This document shows positions 34,666-38,820 of a stretch of 47,795 nucleotides of DNA, piece after piece. Within the stretch, counting starts at the first letter, position 1; each line of letters opens with the position of its first letter. The notes below the pieces were generated by a model, which saw only the letters and a list, made by a program, of their open reading frames with translations, ran no database searches and was not told the DNA's origin. The position numbers and the translations under genes were made by a program. This DNA is from Pseudorhodoferax aquiterrae (GTDB lineage: Bacteria > Pseudomonadota > Gammaproteobacteria > Burkholderiales > Burkholderiaceae_C). The stretch covers positions 1 through 47,795 of the forward strand of contig NZ_BMYK01000036.1 in the NCBI RefSeq assembly GCF_014652235.1, in the 5' to 3' direction.

Positions 34666-35127
34666 ATGGACCTGCTCGCCGTCTGGATGCCCTGGATCAA
34701 GTTCGTGCACCTGGCCGCCCTGTTGACCTGGTGCGCCAGCCTGCTGGCGCTGCCTCCCTTGCTGGCGCTGGTTCCATCGACCCACGGCCGCGTCGCGCGG
34801 CACCGGTTGCGCGCGGCCATGCGCTTCGTCTACATCGCACTGGCCTCACCGGCCGCCGTGCTGGCCGTGGTCTCGGGCACGGCGCTGATCCACCTCATGA
34901 ACGTCTACGCGCCCTGGTTCTTCGCCAAGCTCACGCTGGTGGCGGCGATGGCCTTGTTCCACGCGGGTTGCGGCAAGCTGATCCTGGTGCTGCGCGAGCG
35001 GCCGCGTGCCTGGCCGCCGGGGCTGCTGCTGGCCATGGCGGGGCTGCCGATGGCGCTGATCCTCGGCGTGCTGTGGCTGGTGCTGGCCCAGCCCGCGTGG
35101 CCCTTCAGTCTTCCTCGTCTTCGTTGA
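34666..35127 (+). CDS. CopD/HemJ-like four-helix membrane protein
   Basis: 153 residues, four helices. The first carries a conserved-looking His in [20 protein letters not shown] (H15), as in HemJ and CopD proteins, and further on [20 protein letters not shown] and [20 protein letters not shown]. Related proteins bind haem or help copper uptake. Next to an oxidase locus, a role in haem or copper supply is a reasonable inference, no more. Its end overlaps the convergent DUF2231 gene by 23 bases. Confidence 0.75.
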
Positions 35128-35587: not shown

Positions 35588-36319
35588 GCTGCGCACCACT
35601 GTAGAAGGCGCGCGGCGCGGCGCGCTGCCGGCGCACACGCCGTGGCCCTGTGCGCAACCACCCTGCTGGCCGGTTGCGGCACCAGCGGCCCGCTGTCCGC
35701 GCTGGACCCGGCCGGCCCGGGCGCCGCGCCCATCGCACAGGTCTGGTGGTGGATGTTCTGTAGCGCCAGCGTGCTCACGCTGGGCATGACGGTGCTGGGC
35801 CTGGCCGCCGCGTTGCGGCGCCGGCCCGGCGGGGTGTCCACGCCGCGCGCGGAGCGCGCCTGGCTGCTCGGCGGCGGGCTGCTGCTGCCGGGCCTGGCGA
35901 TCGGGGCGCTGCTGCTGTGGGGCCTGCGCGCCGGCCACGCCTTGCTGCCCTTGCCCGGCGCAGCCCCCGTGTTCACGGTGGAGGTCACGGCGCGCCAGTG
36001 GCAGTGGGACGTGCACTACCCGGCCCATCCGCTCGCATCGACGCAGCCCAACCGCATCGACATCCCGGCCGGCCAGCCCGTGGACGTGCGCGTGCGCACG
36101 GTCGACGTGATCCACGGCTTCTGGGTGCCGCGCCTGGGCGGCAAGATCGACACGATCCCGGGCCGCACCAACGTCGTCCGCCTGCAGGCCGATGCACCAG
36201 GCATCTACCGCGGCGTCTGCGCCGAGTACTGTGGCACGGGCCACGCGCGCATGCCCATGGAAGTGCATGCGCACGCGCCCGAAGCACTGGCCGCACGCAT
36301 GGCCGGGGGGACGCCGTGA
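35579..36319 (+). CDS. Cytochrome c oxidase subunit II, lipoprotein type
   Basis: 246 residues from GTG at 35579; GTG at 35642 is an alternative. The longer form has a good lipoprotein signal: Arg-rich n-region, hydrophobic core and LLAGC (Cys33). Two helices follow (about 54-78 and 98-118), then a cupredoxin domain with ARQWQWDVHYP, VIHGFWVPRLGGKIDTIPGR and the full CuA set in CAEYCGTGHARM (Cys, Glu, Cys, His, Met). It takes electrons from a periplasmic cytochrome c; no c-type haem domain is fused. It overlaps the subunit I+III gene in GTGA. Confidence 0.9.
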   Translation: MLHAAHHCRRRAARRAAGAHAVALCATTLLAGCGTSGPLSALDPAGPGAAPIAQVWWWMFCSASVLTLGMTVLGLAAALRRRPGGVSTPRAERAWLLGGGLLLPGLAIGALLLWGLRAGHALLPLPGAAPVFTVEVTARQWQWDVHYPAHPLASTQPNRIDIPAGQPVDVRVRTVDVIHGFWVPRLGGKIDTIPGRTNVVRLQADAPGIYRGVCAEYCGTGHARMPMEVHAHAPEALAARMAGGTP

Positions 36320-38820
36320 CGCAGCGCTCTCCTCGGCCGGTGGCCCTGCACCGCCGTCTGCAACAGGTCTGGCACAACCCGCCTGGCTGGCGTTCGCTCT
36401 CGGCGGTCAACCACAACATCGTGGGCCGGCGCTTCATCGCCACGGCGCTGCTGTTCTTCTTCGTCGGCGGCCTGCTGGCCATGCTGATCCGGGCCCAGCT
36501 GGCGACGTCGCAATCGGCCTTCCTGGACGACGCGCTGTACGCCCAGGTCTTCACGATGCACGGGACCATCATGATGTTCCTGTTCGCGATCCCGCTGATC
36601 GAGGGCTTCGCGATCTACCTGCTGCCCAAGATGCTGGGCGCGCGCGACCTGGCCTACCCGCGCCTGGGCGCCTTCGGCTACTGGTGCTACCTGCTGGGCG
36701 GGCTGATCCTGCTCGGCGCGCTGGCGGCCGGGCTGGCGCCCGACGGCGGCTGGTTCCTCTACACGCCGCTGTCCAACGCCACGCACACGCCGGGCGTGAA
36801 CGCCGACGTCTGGCTGCTGGGCATCACCTTCGTGGAGATCTCGGCCGTGGCCGCGGCGGTGGAGATCATCGTCACCATCCTGACCATGCGCGCGCCGGGC
36901 ATGCGGCTCGTGGACATGCCGGTGTTCGCCTGGTACATGCTGGTCACGGCCGGCATGATGCTGGTGGGTTTTCCGCCGCTGATTCTCGGAAGCCTGATCC
37001 TGGAGCTCGAACGCGCGGCCGGCTGGCCCTTCTTCGACGCCGCACGCGGCGGCGACCCGCTGCTGTGGCAACACCTGTTCTGGCTGTTCGGCCACCCCGA
37101 GGTCTACATCATCTTTCTGCCCGCGGCGGGCATCGTCTCCACGCTGATCCCCACCTTCGCGCAGCGTCCGCTGGTGGGCCGCAGCTGGGTGCTGGCCAGC
37201 GTGGTGGCCATGGGCTTCATCAGCTTCGGGCTCTGGGTGCACCACATGTTCACGGTCGGCATCCCGCACCTGGCGCTGGTGTTCTTCTCGGCCGCGAGCA
37301 TGCTGGTGGCGATTCCCACGGCGGTGCAGATGTTCGCCTGGATTGCCACGTTGTGGCACGGCCGGCCGAAGCTGGCGCTGCCCATGCTGTGGCTGCTGGG
37401 CTTCCTCGTGGTCTTCGTCTGCGGCGGGCTCACGGGCGTGATGCTGGCGCTGGTGCCGTTCAACTGGCAGGCCCACGACACGCACTTCGTCGTCGCGCAC
37501 CTGCACTACGTGCTGGTCGGCGGCTTCCTGTTCCCGTTCCTCGCGGGCGTGTACTACTGGTTCCCGCACCTGTTCGGCCGCCAGACGCTGCCGCGCCTGG
37601 GCAGCTGGGCGTTCTGGCTCGTCTTCGTCGGCTTCAACACCACCTTTTTCGTGATGCACCTCACCGGGCTGCTGGGCATGCCGCGGCGCGTGGGCAGCTA
37701 TGTGGCCGGGCTGGGCTGGGATCTGCCGAACCTGGTGTCCTCCCTCGGCAGTTTCGTGATGGGAATCGGCTTCTTCCTGCTGCTGATCGACCTGGTGGTG
37801 AGCGCCTACCTGGGCCGCATCGCCCCGCAGAATCCCTGGCGTGCCTCCACGCTGGAATGGGCCATGCCCACACCGCCGACCTTCTACAACTTCGCGAGCC
37901 AGCCGCGCATACCGGGCGCCGAGCCGCTGTGGACGGAACCGGACCTCGGTGCACGCGCAGCGGCGGGCGAAGGCCTGCTGGCCGAGGCGCAGGCGGACGA
38001 GCAGCGCAGCCTGGGGAGCGATCCCGTCAGCGGCGAGCCCACCCACGTGGTCCGCCTGCCGCGCCCCAGCTGGCTGCCGCTGGCGGCCGCCCTGGCCGTC
38101 GGTGGCGTGTTCATGGCTCTGCTGACGAAGAACTACGGGCTCGCGCCGCCGGCGGCGCTGCTGGCGCTCGCGCTGTTCTGGTGCTGGGCGTGGTCCATCG
38201 GGCTGCGGCAGGATCCCGCCGCCGTAGACGTGGGGCCGGGCCTGCAGCTCCCCGTGCACGACGTGGTCGACCGCGCCCCCGGCCGCGCCGGCCTGCTCTG
38301 GACGCTGGTGGCCAATGGCAGCTTCTTCGTCTCCCTGCTGTTCGGCCACGCCTATCTCGCGACCGTGGCGCCGGGCTGGCCGCCGCCCCGCTGGCTGCAC
38401 GCCGGCTGGACCACGCCGCTGGCCGGCGCCGCCGCGCTGGCCCTGGCCTGTGGCGCCATGCACTACGCCGAGCGCGCCAACGCCCGCGGCGATGCGCGCG
38501 GGCGCCAGCTGGCCCTGCTGGCGGCCCTCATCGCCGCGCTGTCCGCCACGCTGCTGCTGCCAACCGGTGTGCTGCCCGGCATGCCCTCGCCACGCGAACA
38601 TGCCTACGGTGCCATGCTGGCCTTCAGCCTGGCCTATGCGGTGCTGCACACGGCCCTGGGCGCGGTGTTCGCGGCCTATGCGCTCGCCCGCGGGCAGACC
38701 GGCTACCTGTCGGCCCGGCGCAGCGTGGAACTGCACAACGCGCGGCTCTGGTGGGACTACACGGCCGCCACGGGCGCCGTGCTGCTGCTGGCCATGCACG
38801 TGCCGGGCTGGAGGCACTGA
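36316..38820 (+). CDS. Fused cytochrome c oxidase subunits I and III
   Basis: 834 residues from GTG at 36316. Subunit I is about 1-530: low-spin haem His in FTMHGTIMMF (H82), CuB and cross-link in GHPEVYIIF (H260, Y264), WVHHMFTVG (H309, H310), HFVVAHLHYV (haem a3 and a ligands) and GMPRRVGSY. A charged linker (about 530-580), two helices and a subunit III-like part (about 650-834, LHTALGAVFAAYALAR near the end) follow. Departures from the mitochondrial pattern: Q338 at the K-pathway Lys (PTAVQMF), I100 and G118 at D-pathway Asn positions though D111 is kept, and NG (667-668) where subunit III has SE. Proton pumping is therefore doubtful. Confidence 0.93.
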   Translation: MTQRSPRPVALHRRLQQVWHNPPGWRSLSAVNHNIVGRRFIATALLFFFVGGLLAMLIRAQLATSQSAFLDDALYAQVFTMHGTIMMFLFAIPLIEGFAIYLLPKMLGARDLAYPRLGAFGYWCYLLGGLILLGALAAGLAPDGGWFLYTPLSNATHTPGVNADVWLLGITFVEISAVAAAVEIIVTILTMRAPGMRLVDMPVFAWYMLVTAGMMLVGFPPLILGSLILELERAAGWPFFDAARGGDPLLWQHLFWLFGHPEVYIIFLPAAGIVSTLIPTFAQRPLVGRSWVLASVVAMGFISFGLWVHHMFTVGIPHLALVFFSAASMLVAIPTAVQMFAWIATLWHGRPKLALPMLWLLGFLVVFVCGGLTGVMLALVPFNWQAHDTHFVVAHLHYVLVGGFLFPFLAGVYYWFPHLFGRQTLPRLGSWAFWLVFVGFNTTFFVMHLTGLLGMPRRVGSYVAGLGWDLPNLVSSLGSFVMGIGFFLLLIDLVVSAYLGRIAPQNPWRASTLEWAMPTPPTFYNFASQPRIPGAEPLWTEPDLGARAAAGEGLLAEAQADEQRSLGSDPVSGEPTHVVRLPRPSWLPLAAALAVGGVFMALLTKNYGLAPPAALLALALFWCWAWSIGLRQDPAAVDVGPGLQLPVHDVVDRAPGRAGLLWTLVANGSFFVSLLFGHAYLATVAPGWPPPRWLHAGWTTPLAGAAALALACGAMHYAERANARGDARGRQLALLAALIAALSATLLLPTGVLPGMPSPREHAYGAMLAFSLAYAVLHTALGAVFAAYALARGQTGYLSARRSVELHNARLWWDYTAATGAVLLLAMHVPGWRH

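What the first reader, a model, noticed from the sequence alone, without database searches (positions are those of the whole stretch)
36316..38820. Oxidase subunit I+III with Gln in place of the K-pathway lysine
Aligned by eye to mitochondrial subunit I, all haem a, haem a3 and CuB ligands are kept (H82, H260, H309/H310, HFVVAHLHYV) and so is Y264. The helix VIII Lys of the K-pathway (bovine K319) is Q338 in PTAVQMF. The spacing to the HH pair is the same 28 residues, so the position is secure. In model A-type oxidases, loss of this Lys stops turnover, so this enzyme must load protons another way. I recall similar VQ motifs in some other bacterial fused subunits, so it may mark a whole clade rather than this strain alone.
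Basis: partly seen in the sequence, partly recalled or inferred. Interest (0 to 1): 0.72.

Follow-up and report, generated by a model that had tools for sequence, protein, structure and literature searches.

The report
Cytochrome oxidase missing its K proton channel
This bacterial gene encodes a cytochrome oxidase (the enzyme that reduces oxygen in respiration) of a widespread lineage in which one of the two standard proton channels has lost its key residues and the other has been rebuilt, so it offers a natural test of how these enzymes take up and pump protons.

Summary
Window 36316-38820 (+) encodes an intact subunit I+III fusion with Gln338 (CAG, 37327-37329) where P. denitrificans has Lys354; haem and CuB ligands and the active-site Tyr are kept. 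It marks a clade: of 175 distinct A-family subunits compared, 98 have Gln, 75 Lys, 2 Met, and the Gln rows form one side of a fully supported branch. The clade also lacks the subunit II K-channel entry motif (11 of 11 canonical loci, 0 of 74 here), and its D-channel is remodelled: Asn113 to Ile/Val/Met/Leu, Asn131 mostly to Ser/Thr, Asn199 to Glu, with new Glu at 109 and 190. Asn131 to Ser/Thr decouples pumping in model enzymes (PMC12901375, passages). Best explanation: a working cytochrome c oxidase that takes its substrate protons through the modified D path, with weak or no pumping. Function is untested. The fused lineage is known; my searches found no report of this channel state, but key sources were not held. 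New variant of a known kind.

The parts
36316..38820 (+). Subunit I+III fusion (relatives are annotated ctaD); Gln-type A-family oxidase, 834 aa
   Evidence: TIGR02891 702.1 bits, cut-off 670.75; PF00115 480.5 bits; 2yev_A I+III, TM 0.84/0.89
37327..37329 (+). Q338 codon CAG, place of P. denitrificans K354
37138..37143 (+). S275-T276: places of S291 (kept) and of residue 292 at the K-channel mouth (E/H/D/Q in 68 of 75 Lys-type rows; Thr here)
37318..37320 (+). T335, place of K-channel T351 (kept)
36601..36603 (+). E96, new Glu at the place of G109 (94 of 98 Gln-type rows)
36613..36615 (+). I100, place of D-channel N113
36646..36648 (+). D111, D-channel entry Asp (D124), kept here
36667..36669 (+). 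G118, place of D-channel N131 (bovine N98); Ser or Thr in 78 of 98 Gln-type rows, Gly in 9
36835..36837 (+). E174, new Glu at the place of G190 (98 of 98 Gln-type rows)
36862..36864 (+). E183, Glu at the place of D-channel N199 (95 of 98 Gln-type rows)
37099..37107 (+). E262 to Y264 (E278 and Y280), kept
35600..36319 (+). Subunit II (coxB) with CuA ligands, lipobox-like LLAGC and no room for a cytochrome c domain after CuA; start codon not fixed
   Evidence: TIGR02866 143.3 bits, just under cut-off 147.7; PF00116
38823..39197 (+). Small membrane-like protein, 124 aa, no Pfam match; a small gene also follows ctaD in L222
39182..39928 (+). Caa3_CtaG assembly protein
34666..35127 (+). CopD/UPF0093-like membrane protein
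   Evidence: same place annotated CopD family in L222
35105..35587 (-). DUF2231 membrane protein, divergent
   Evidence: same place annotated in L222

Best explanation
It is a CuA-containing A-family cytochrome c oxidase of the subunit I+III (COX operon type a) lineage in which the K-pathway has been given up. Shown by sequence: Lys354 to Gln, the subunit II entry motif lost, polar mouth residue 292 to Thr/Met, 357 to Ala/Val/Cys; in the same clade the three D-channel asparagines are replaced and Glu appear at 109, 190 and 199, while E278 stays and D124 stays Asp or Glu outside the coxN-like branch. Inferred: all substrate protons, including those that use the K path in model enzymes during reduction of the active site, enter through the modified D path (D111, E183, E96, E174, E262). 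Also inferred: without the asparagine gate and with added carboxylates, proton pumping is weak or absent, so the enzyme works mainly as an uncoupled or low-coupling oxidase, usually kept beside a canonical one.
For: Gln in 98, Lys in 75, Met in 2 of 175 distinct rows; the Gln rows are one side of a branch with full local support (66-row mixture-model tree). Motif E-x-x-W-T-x-x-P in subunit II: 11 of 11 canonical loci with a CuA ORF, 0 of 65 Gln-type loci with a CuA ORF, 0 of 4 coxM-type loci, 0 of 5 plasmid loci. N113, N131 and N199 are Asn in 75 of 75 Lys-type rows; in 98 Gln-type rows they are I/V/M/L 97, S/T 78 and E 95. E278 is E 96, D 2; D124 is D 83, E 6, other 9. Model literature (PMC12901375, passages): K319M blocks reduction of haem a3; N98D/T/S keep O2 reduction but lose pumping; adding N98D or N98T to the Lys-to-Met mutant restores a step that the single mutant slows. 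A Ser-to-Asp change at the residue before position 190 abolishes pumping in R. sphaeroides (PMC7341133, passages). In the draft of Thioalkalivibrio thiocyanoxidans ARh2 the Gln-type gene is the only A-family subunit recognised among 4 PF00115 matches, so it is probably active.
Against: No activity or proton measurement exists here. The changes arose together on one branch, so their linkage is one event and not a statistical proof of compensation. Some Gln-type rows lack E96 (Gln in 4 of 98) or E183 (Ala/Val in 3 of 98), and 9 of 98 keep Asn at 131, so these changes are not strictly tied to Gln. S291 (78 of 98) and T351 (84 of 98) of the K path persist. The window's own subunit II has a Glu three residues before a Trp (PRAERAWLLGGG) that a weak phmmer alignment (E 4.8) pairs with the entry Glu of R. 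sphaeroides, although its nearest relative L010 lacks it. Natural Lys-to-Met also occurs in a row with intact D asparagines (L206), so K loss does not need the D changes. PMC12901375 itself argues for pumping by another (H) pathway, in which the decoupling mutants are read otherwise.
Confidence: 0.5

Rival explanations
1. The K path still works without Lys: Q338, T335, S275 and water carry protons to Y264 from a new entry, as in the Lys-free K-channel of B-family enzymes.
For: T351 kept in 84, S291 in 78 and Y280 in 98 of 98 Gln-type rows; B-type K-channels use Thr, Ser and Tyr in place of these residues (PMC3084760, passages); the window's subunit II has a Glu near the old entry.
Against: The subunit II entry motif is absent in 74 of 74; mouth residue 292 is Thr/Met in 90 of 98 and 357 is Ala/Val/Cys in 92 of 98; 20 of 98 have Ala at S291.
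Confidence: 0.3
2. The enzyme is slow, regulatory or decaying, and the channel changes are relaxed constraint.
For: It is usually an extra oxidase: 11 of 12 named genomes also hold a Lys-type A-family subunit; one relative looks disrupted by stops (G109); coxMNOPQ inactivation had no fitness effect in C. necator (PMC11540253, passage; whether that enzyme is of this type was not tested).
Against: All six His ligands and Tyr kept in 98 of 98, and the replacements are themselves conserved (E174 in 98, E183 in 95 of 98); assembly and subunit genes stay together; it is the only A-family subunit recognised in one draft genome.
Confidence: 0.12
3. Misalignment or sequencing error at 37327-37329.
For: A single base separates CAG from AAG.
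Against: Same residue in 98 distinct sequences from many genera, gap-free alignment with fixed spacing.
Confidence: 0.01

Closest known systems
COX1-3 fusions of COX operon type a / A1 subtype a (Degli Esposti 2014; 2019 paper)
   Same: I+III fusion in proteobacteria beside other oxidases; probably the same lineage (PMC4013037, PMC6431628, passages)
   Different: The passages I saw say nothing of K354, the subunit II Glu or the D asparagines; I did not compare their listed sequence itself
Thermus thermophilus caa3 oxidase (2yev)
   Same: Same I+III fold over the full length, TM 0.84/0.89, 30% identity
   Different: Cytochrome c domain on subunit II there (recalled); its K-channel residues were not aligned here (recalled as canonical Lys)
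P. denitrificans / R. sphaeroides aa3 (A1 type)
   Same: Metal ligands, Tyr280, D124, E278, CuA
   Different: K354, N113, N131, N199 and the subunit II entry Glu (R. sphaeroides E101) are present there and replaced or not conserved in this clade
Archaeal COX1 with lost K-channel
   Same: Family A subunits without a canonical K-channel; seven independent losses follow from one scenario of the authors (PMC8239418, passages)
   Different: Archaeal; the classification is in a supplementary figure I could not open
Coupling mutants N98D/T/S and Lys-to-Met double mutants of model oxidases
   Same: Same positions changed (PMC12901375, passages)
   Different: Laboratory mutants, not natural lineages; Gln at K and Glu at 109, 190 or 199 are not mentioned in the passages seen

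Membership tests
A-family haem-copper oxygen reductase | Six His ligands and helix VI Tyr | tested here: met
A-family haem-copper oxygen reductase | CtaD/CoxA sequence model above curated cut-off | tested here: met
   TIGR02891 702.1 against 670.75 bits
A1 type (Pereira scheme) | D-channel Asp124 and Glu278 | tested here: met
   D111 and E262 in the window; D124 is neither Asp nor Glu in 9 of 98 Gln-type rows
A1 type (Pereira scheme) | D-channel Asn113, Asn131, Asn199 | tested here: not met
   I100, G118, E183
A type (Pereira scheme) | K-channel Lys354, Thr351, Ser291, Tyr280 | tested here: not met
   Lys354 is Gln; the other three are kept in the window
A type | Subunit II K-channel entry Glu in E-x-x-W-T-x-x-P | tested here: not met
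   Motif absent; the window has a nearby, unconserved Glu, so its spatial place is open
Cytochrome c oxidase (not quinol) | CuA ligands in subunit II | tested here: met
   CAEYCGTGHARM and an upstream His
caa3-type I+III fusion | Subunit III fold fused after subunit I | tested here: met
   Full-length Foldseek match to 2yev_A; no Pfam COX3 hit
B family | B-type K-channel with inactive D-channel | tested here: not met
   D111 and E262 kept; 1ehk chain matches only weakly, E 1.4e-8
Proton-pumping oxidase | Measured proton translocation | not testable with these tools
   -

The most novel reading that the evidence does not exclude
A whole lineage of A-family oxidases runs on a single rebuilt proton path and does not pump; in its coxN-like branch even the D-channel Asp is gone (9 of 98 Gln-type rows: 7 Asn, 1 Ser, 1 His), and all 9 also lack the subunit II entry motif, so those enzymes lack both canonical cytoplasmic entries and may take protons by a third route or from the periplasmic side.
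Probability: 0.2. Interest if true: 0.85.

Novelty: new variant of a known kind. Interest (0 to 1): 0.6.

Why it matters
Whether an A-family oxidase can run without the K path, and what the D-channel asparagines do for pumping, has been studied with impaired laboratory mutants. Here are natural enzymes, conserved across many genera, that carry both kinds of change plus new carboxylates, so models of gating and coupling can be tested on stable proteins. Relatives of the window protein occur on 244 of 72,556 plasmid records at E up to 1e-150 (residue 338 was read in 5 plasmid loci, fetched from this search and, all Gln). Of 20 records listed, 14 name the gene ctaD, 1 cytochrome c oxidase subunit I, 5 show no feature. 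Genome-based energy budgets that assume full pumping for such genes may be wrong.

Tried and rejected
Sequencing error and misalignment: rejected by recurrence and gap-free alignment. A relocated Lys: no basic residue reaches 30% in helices VI-IX of Gln-type rows except position 290, which is equally basic in Lys-type rows; new basic residues of the clade lie elsewhere, at 39, 105, 190, 244, 350, 427, 505 and 535. Strain-only oddity: rejected. NO reductase or B/C-family reading: rejected by ligands and model scores. Strict tie of Gln338 with E96, E183 or loss of N131: not upheld. Linkage statistics were not attempted because the package arose once. Alkaliphile link: several hosts bear names of alkaliphiles (recalled), not tested. 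Distances in the AlphaFold model: coordinates are not given to scripts. Literature: ten searches (of these 12, 64, 65 and 68 asked about operon names or mutants) listed no paper that I could recognise as reporting this Gln in this clade; I saw passages of 11 papers and listings of the rest.

An error of mine, mended: to the row for L022 was a wrong-frame ORF, and I took the gene for frame-broken. One search had read it correctly (intact, Gln). One search uses the right reading, realigns all 190 rows (all six His present in each) and replaces the counts. The 66-row tree did not contain L022.
Full report
WHAT IS THERE. The window ORF 36316-38820 (+) is an intact 834-aa fusion of subunits I and III. 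It scores above the curated cut-off for CtaD/CoxA (TIGR02891, 702.1 against 670.75 bits). An AlphaFold2 model (51 sequences, mean pLDDT 87.8, pTM 0.91) matches the Thermus caa3 I+III subunit 2yev_A over its whole length (TM 0.84/0.89). Residues 317-348 form one helix, and block 331-340 has mean pLDDT 90. The neighbours are a CopD/UPF0093-like protein, a divergent DUF2231 gene, subunit II with CuA ligands, a small protein and Caa3_CtaG. A plasmid of Roseomonas mucosa annotates an assembly protein, CopD, divergent DUF2231, coxB, ctaD and a small hypothetical gene in that order. In a clustering of neighbour ORFs over 80 loci plus the window, the cluster with the window's subunit II ORF reaches 79 of 81 loci, that with its CtaG ORF 70 and that with its CopD-like ORF 59; members were not annotated one by one.

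THE OBSERVATION. Q338 (CAG, 37327-37329) aligns with K354 of P. denitrificans. Numbering was anchored through L130, which aligns with 1ar1 almost end to end. All six His ligands and the Tyr are kept. The spacing to the HH pair is 28 in both.

HOW FAR IT REACHES. They lie in many genera of alpha-, beta- and gammaproteobacteria, one planctomycete (L092) and one record titled Bacillus (L020). On a FastTree of the 175, with six trait columns removed, the Gln rows and the Lys rows each need one change, with full local support; the program warned of long branches (L206, L128, L124). A 66-row tree under the C20 mixture model gave the same split: 33 Gln and the Met row L074 on one side, 32 Lys on the other, SH-aLRT 100. 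Actinobacterial aa3 chains, the best sequence hits in the PDB, have Lys in the 5 of 5 alignments shown.

The lineage is patchy. At E up to 1e-150, 5 of 60 genomes of the window's family have a match, the window's own included. In a draw of 150 genomes of the phylum, 10, own included, have a place of this type by score; of the other nine genomes, eight were confirmed by reading nine subunits (all Gln) and one (G109) carries stops. In 79 planctomycete genomes only the one chosen as centre (G209, genome of L092) had a match of this type; the 28 other rows read there from this search were 27 Lys-type rows, one a duplicate, and L206, before counting the duplicate L190. On plasmids 244 of 72,556 records match P0001 at E up to 1e-150.

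THE K-CHANNEL IS GONE AT MORE THAN ONE PLACE. In subunit II the K-channel entry Glu sits in E-x-x-W-T-x-x-P. All 11 canonical loci with a CuA ORF have the motif (L104 and L120, narrow stretches, showed no CuA ORF); 0 of 65 Gln-type loci with a CuA ORF (of 85 searched), 0 of 4 coxM-type loci and 0 of 5 plasmid loci have it. In subunit I, residue 292 is E/H/D/Q in 68 of 75 Lys-type rows but Thr or Met in 90 of 98 Gln-type rows; 357 is Asn or Ser in 73 of 75 and Ala, Val or Cys in 92 of 98. T351 stays in 84 and S291 in 78 of 98. A point against: the window's own subunit II has a Glu close to that place, not shared by L010.

THE D-CHANNEL IS REBUILT. Asn113, Asn131 and Asn199 are Asn in 75 of 75 Lys-type rows. 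In the 98 Gln-type rows they are I 48, V 27, M 12, L 10, G 1; S 58, T 20, G 9, N 9, A 2; and E 95, A 2, V 1. Position 109 is Glu in 94 and Gln in 4; position 190 is Glu in 98 (Gly in 72, Ile in 3 of 75 Lys-type rows). D124 is Asp in 83, Glu in 6, other in 9; E278 is Glu in 96 and Asp in 2. Among the 75 Lys-type rows, 28 lack Glu278 themselves (26 Ala, 2 Val) (all). The best-scoring Lys-type relative (L189, 491 bits) is canonical at these places, so the package belongs to the Gln lineage. It arose on one branch, so co-occurrence is one event.

WHAT IT PROBABLY DOES. From a review seen in passages (PMC12901375): the Lys-to-Met change blocks haem a3 reduction; N98D, N98T and N98S (P. denitrificans N131) keep oxygen reduction but lose pumping; adding N98D or N98T to the Lys-to-Met mutant restores a step slowed in the single mutant. 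The authors themselves favour pumping by an H-pathway. From PMC7341133 (passages): a Ser-to-Asp change at the R. sphaeroides place of bovine 153 abolished pumping, and bovine 153 lies about 10 A from E242; by the N163/N199 equivalence of PMC12901375 this is the residue before position 190. PMC10341450 (passages) states a consensus that K-channel delivery needs K362. The clade combines K loss, N131 mostly Ser or Thr, and extra carboxylates. The simplest reading is a working oxidase that draws its substrate protons through the D side with little or no pumping. Each functional step is inference.

IS IT ACTIVE? Of 12 named genomes, 11 also hold a Lys-type A-family subunit. Thioalkalivibrio thiocyanoxidans ARh2 showed four PF00115 matches: the Gln-type gene, two without the HP-x-V-Y motif (L181, L187) and one below the cut-off, not fetched. 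That draft could be incomplete. The window genome has a canonical ctaD (L001), a second Lys-type A subunit (L002), two matches that look cbb3-like (L004) and B-like (L005) by eye, and a second copy of the Gln lineage cut by contig ends C69 and C49, whose residue 338 is not in the stretches held.

THE coxN-LIKE BRANCH. L099-L102, L218-L221 and L013 have Asn, Ser or His at D124, and all nine lack the subunit II motif (L144-L147 for the first four; L013 and L218-L221), so they lack both canonical entries. Of the three annotated plasmid loci, two show a separate COX3 and a PQQ-type gene, and all three a c-type cytochrome gene upstream of coxB. Degli Esposti links PQQ dehydrogenases to COX operon type a-II (PMC4013037, passages). 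coxMNOP of C. necator and P. pseudoalcaligenes KF707 (PMC11540253, PMC5492768, passages) may belong here; I did not compare their sequences.

NOVELTY. The fused COX1-3 lineage is known, and K-channel losses in archaeal COX1 have been discussed (PMC8239418, passages). A 2011 classifier reports that only 4 of 1216 sequences lacked the channel residues of their type, and places those with B-type enzymes (PMC3084760, passages); this clade is not named there in the passages seen. Ten searches listed no paper I could recognise as reporting this Gln, the subunit II loss or the Asn-to-Glu change, but subscription papers and supplements were out of reach. I call it a new variant of a known kind.

Noticed in passing
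G000 contigs C69 (end) and C49 (start); L224, L223: A second oxidase of the Gln lineage by similarity (to L011) in the window's genome, with its own coxB and a c-type cytochrome ORF, cut by contig ends.
   Followed up: partly
L074 codon for residue 338; L206: Natural Met at the K354 place: L074 inside the Gln clade, and L206 (planctomycete) with intact D-channel asparagines but Ala at S291 and Ile at T351. The same Lys-to-Met change is inactivating in model oxidases.
   Followed up: partly
L099-L102, L013, L218-L221: coxN-like subunits with Asn, Ser or His in place of D-channel D124 in addition to Gln at K354 and no subunit II entry motif.
   Followed up: partly
G000:C15:766-1358 (L007, L008): A ctaD-like stretch in short open frames that lacks a large middle part; looks like a decayed canonical ctaD copy.
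   Followed up: no
G109:C1:2867789-2869992 (L103): A relative with stops inside the match; it looks like a disrupted gene of this lineage.
   Followed up: no
L011, L056; L079, L080, L084, L086, L093, L098: Asp in place of E278 (GHPDVY) in two Gln-type subunits; Glu in place of D124 in six others.
   Followed up: no
L020: Record titled Bacillus sp. 2B10 holds a Gln-type gene whose motifs closely resemble those of the Sphingomonas locus L018; the title may be wrong or the contig foreign.
   Followed up: no
L052, L053, L054, L058, L067, L068: Several hosts are from genera known for alkaline or salty habitats (recalled); whether the lineage is enriched there was not tested.
   Followed up: no
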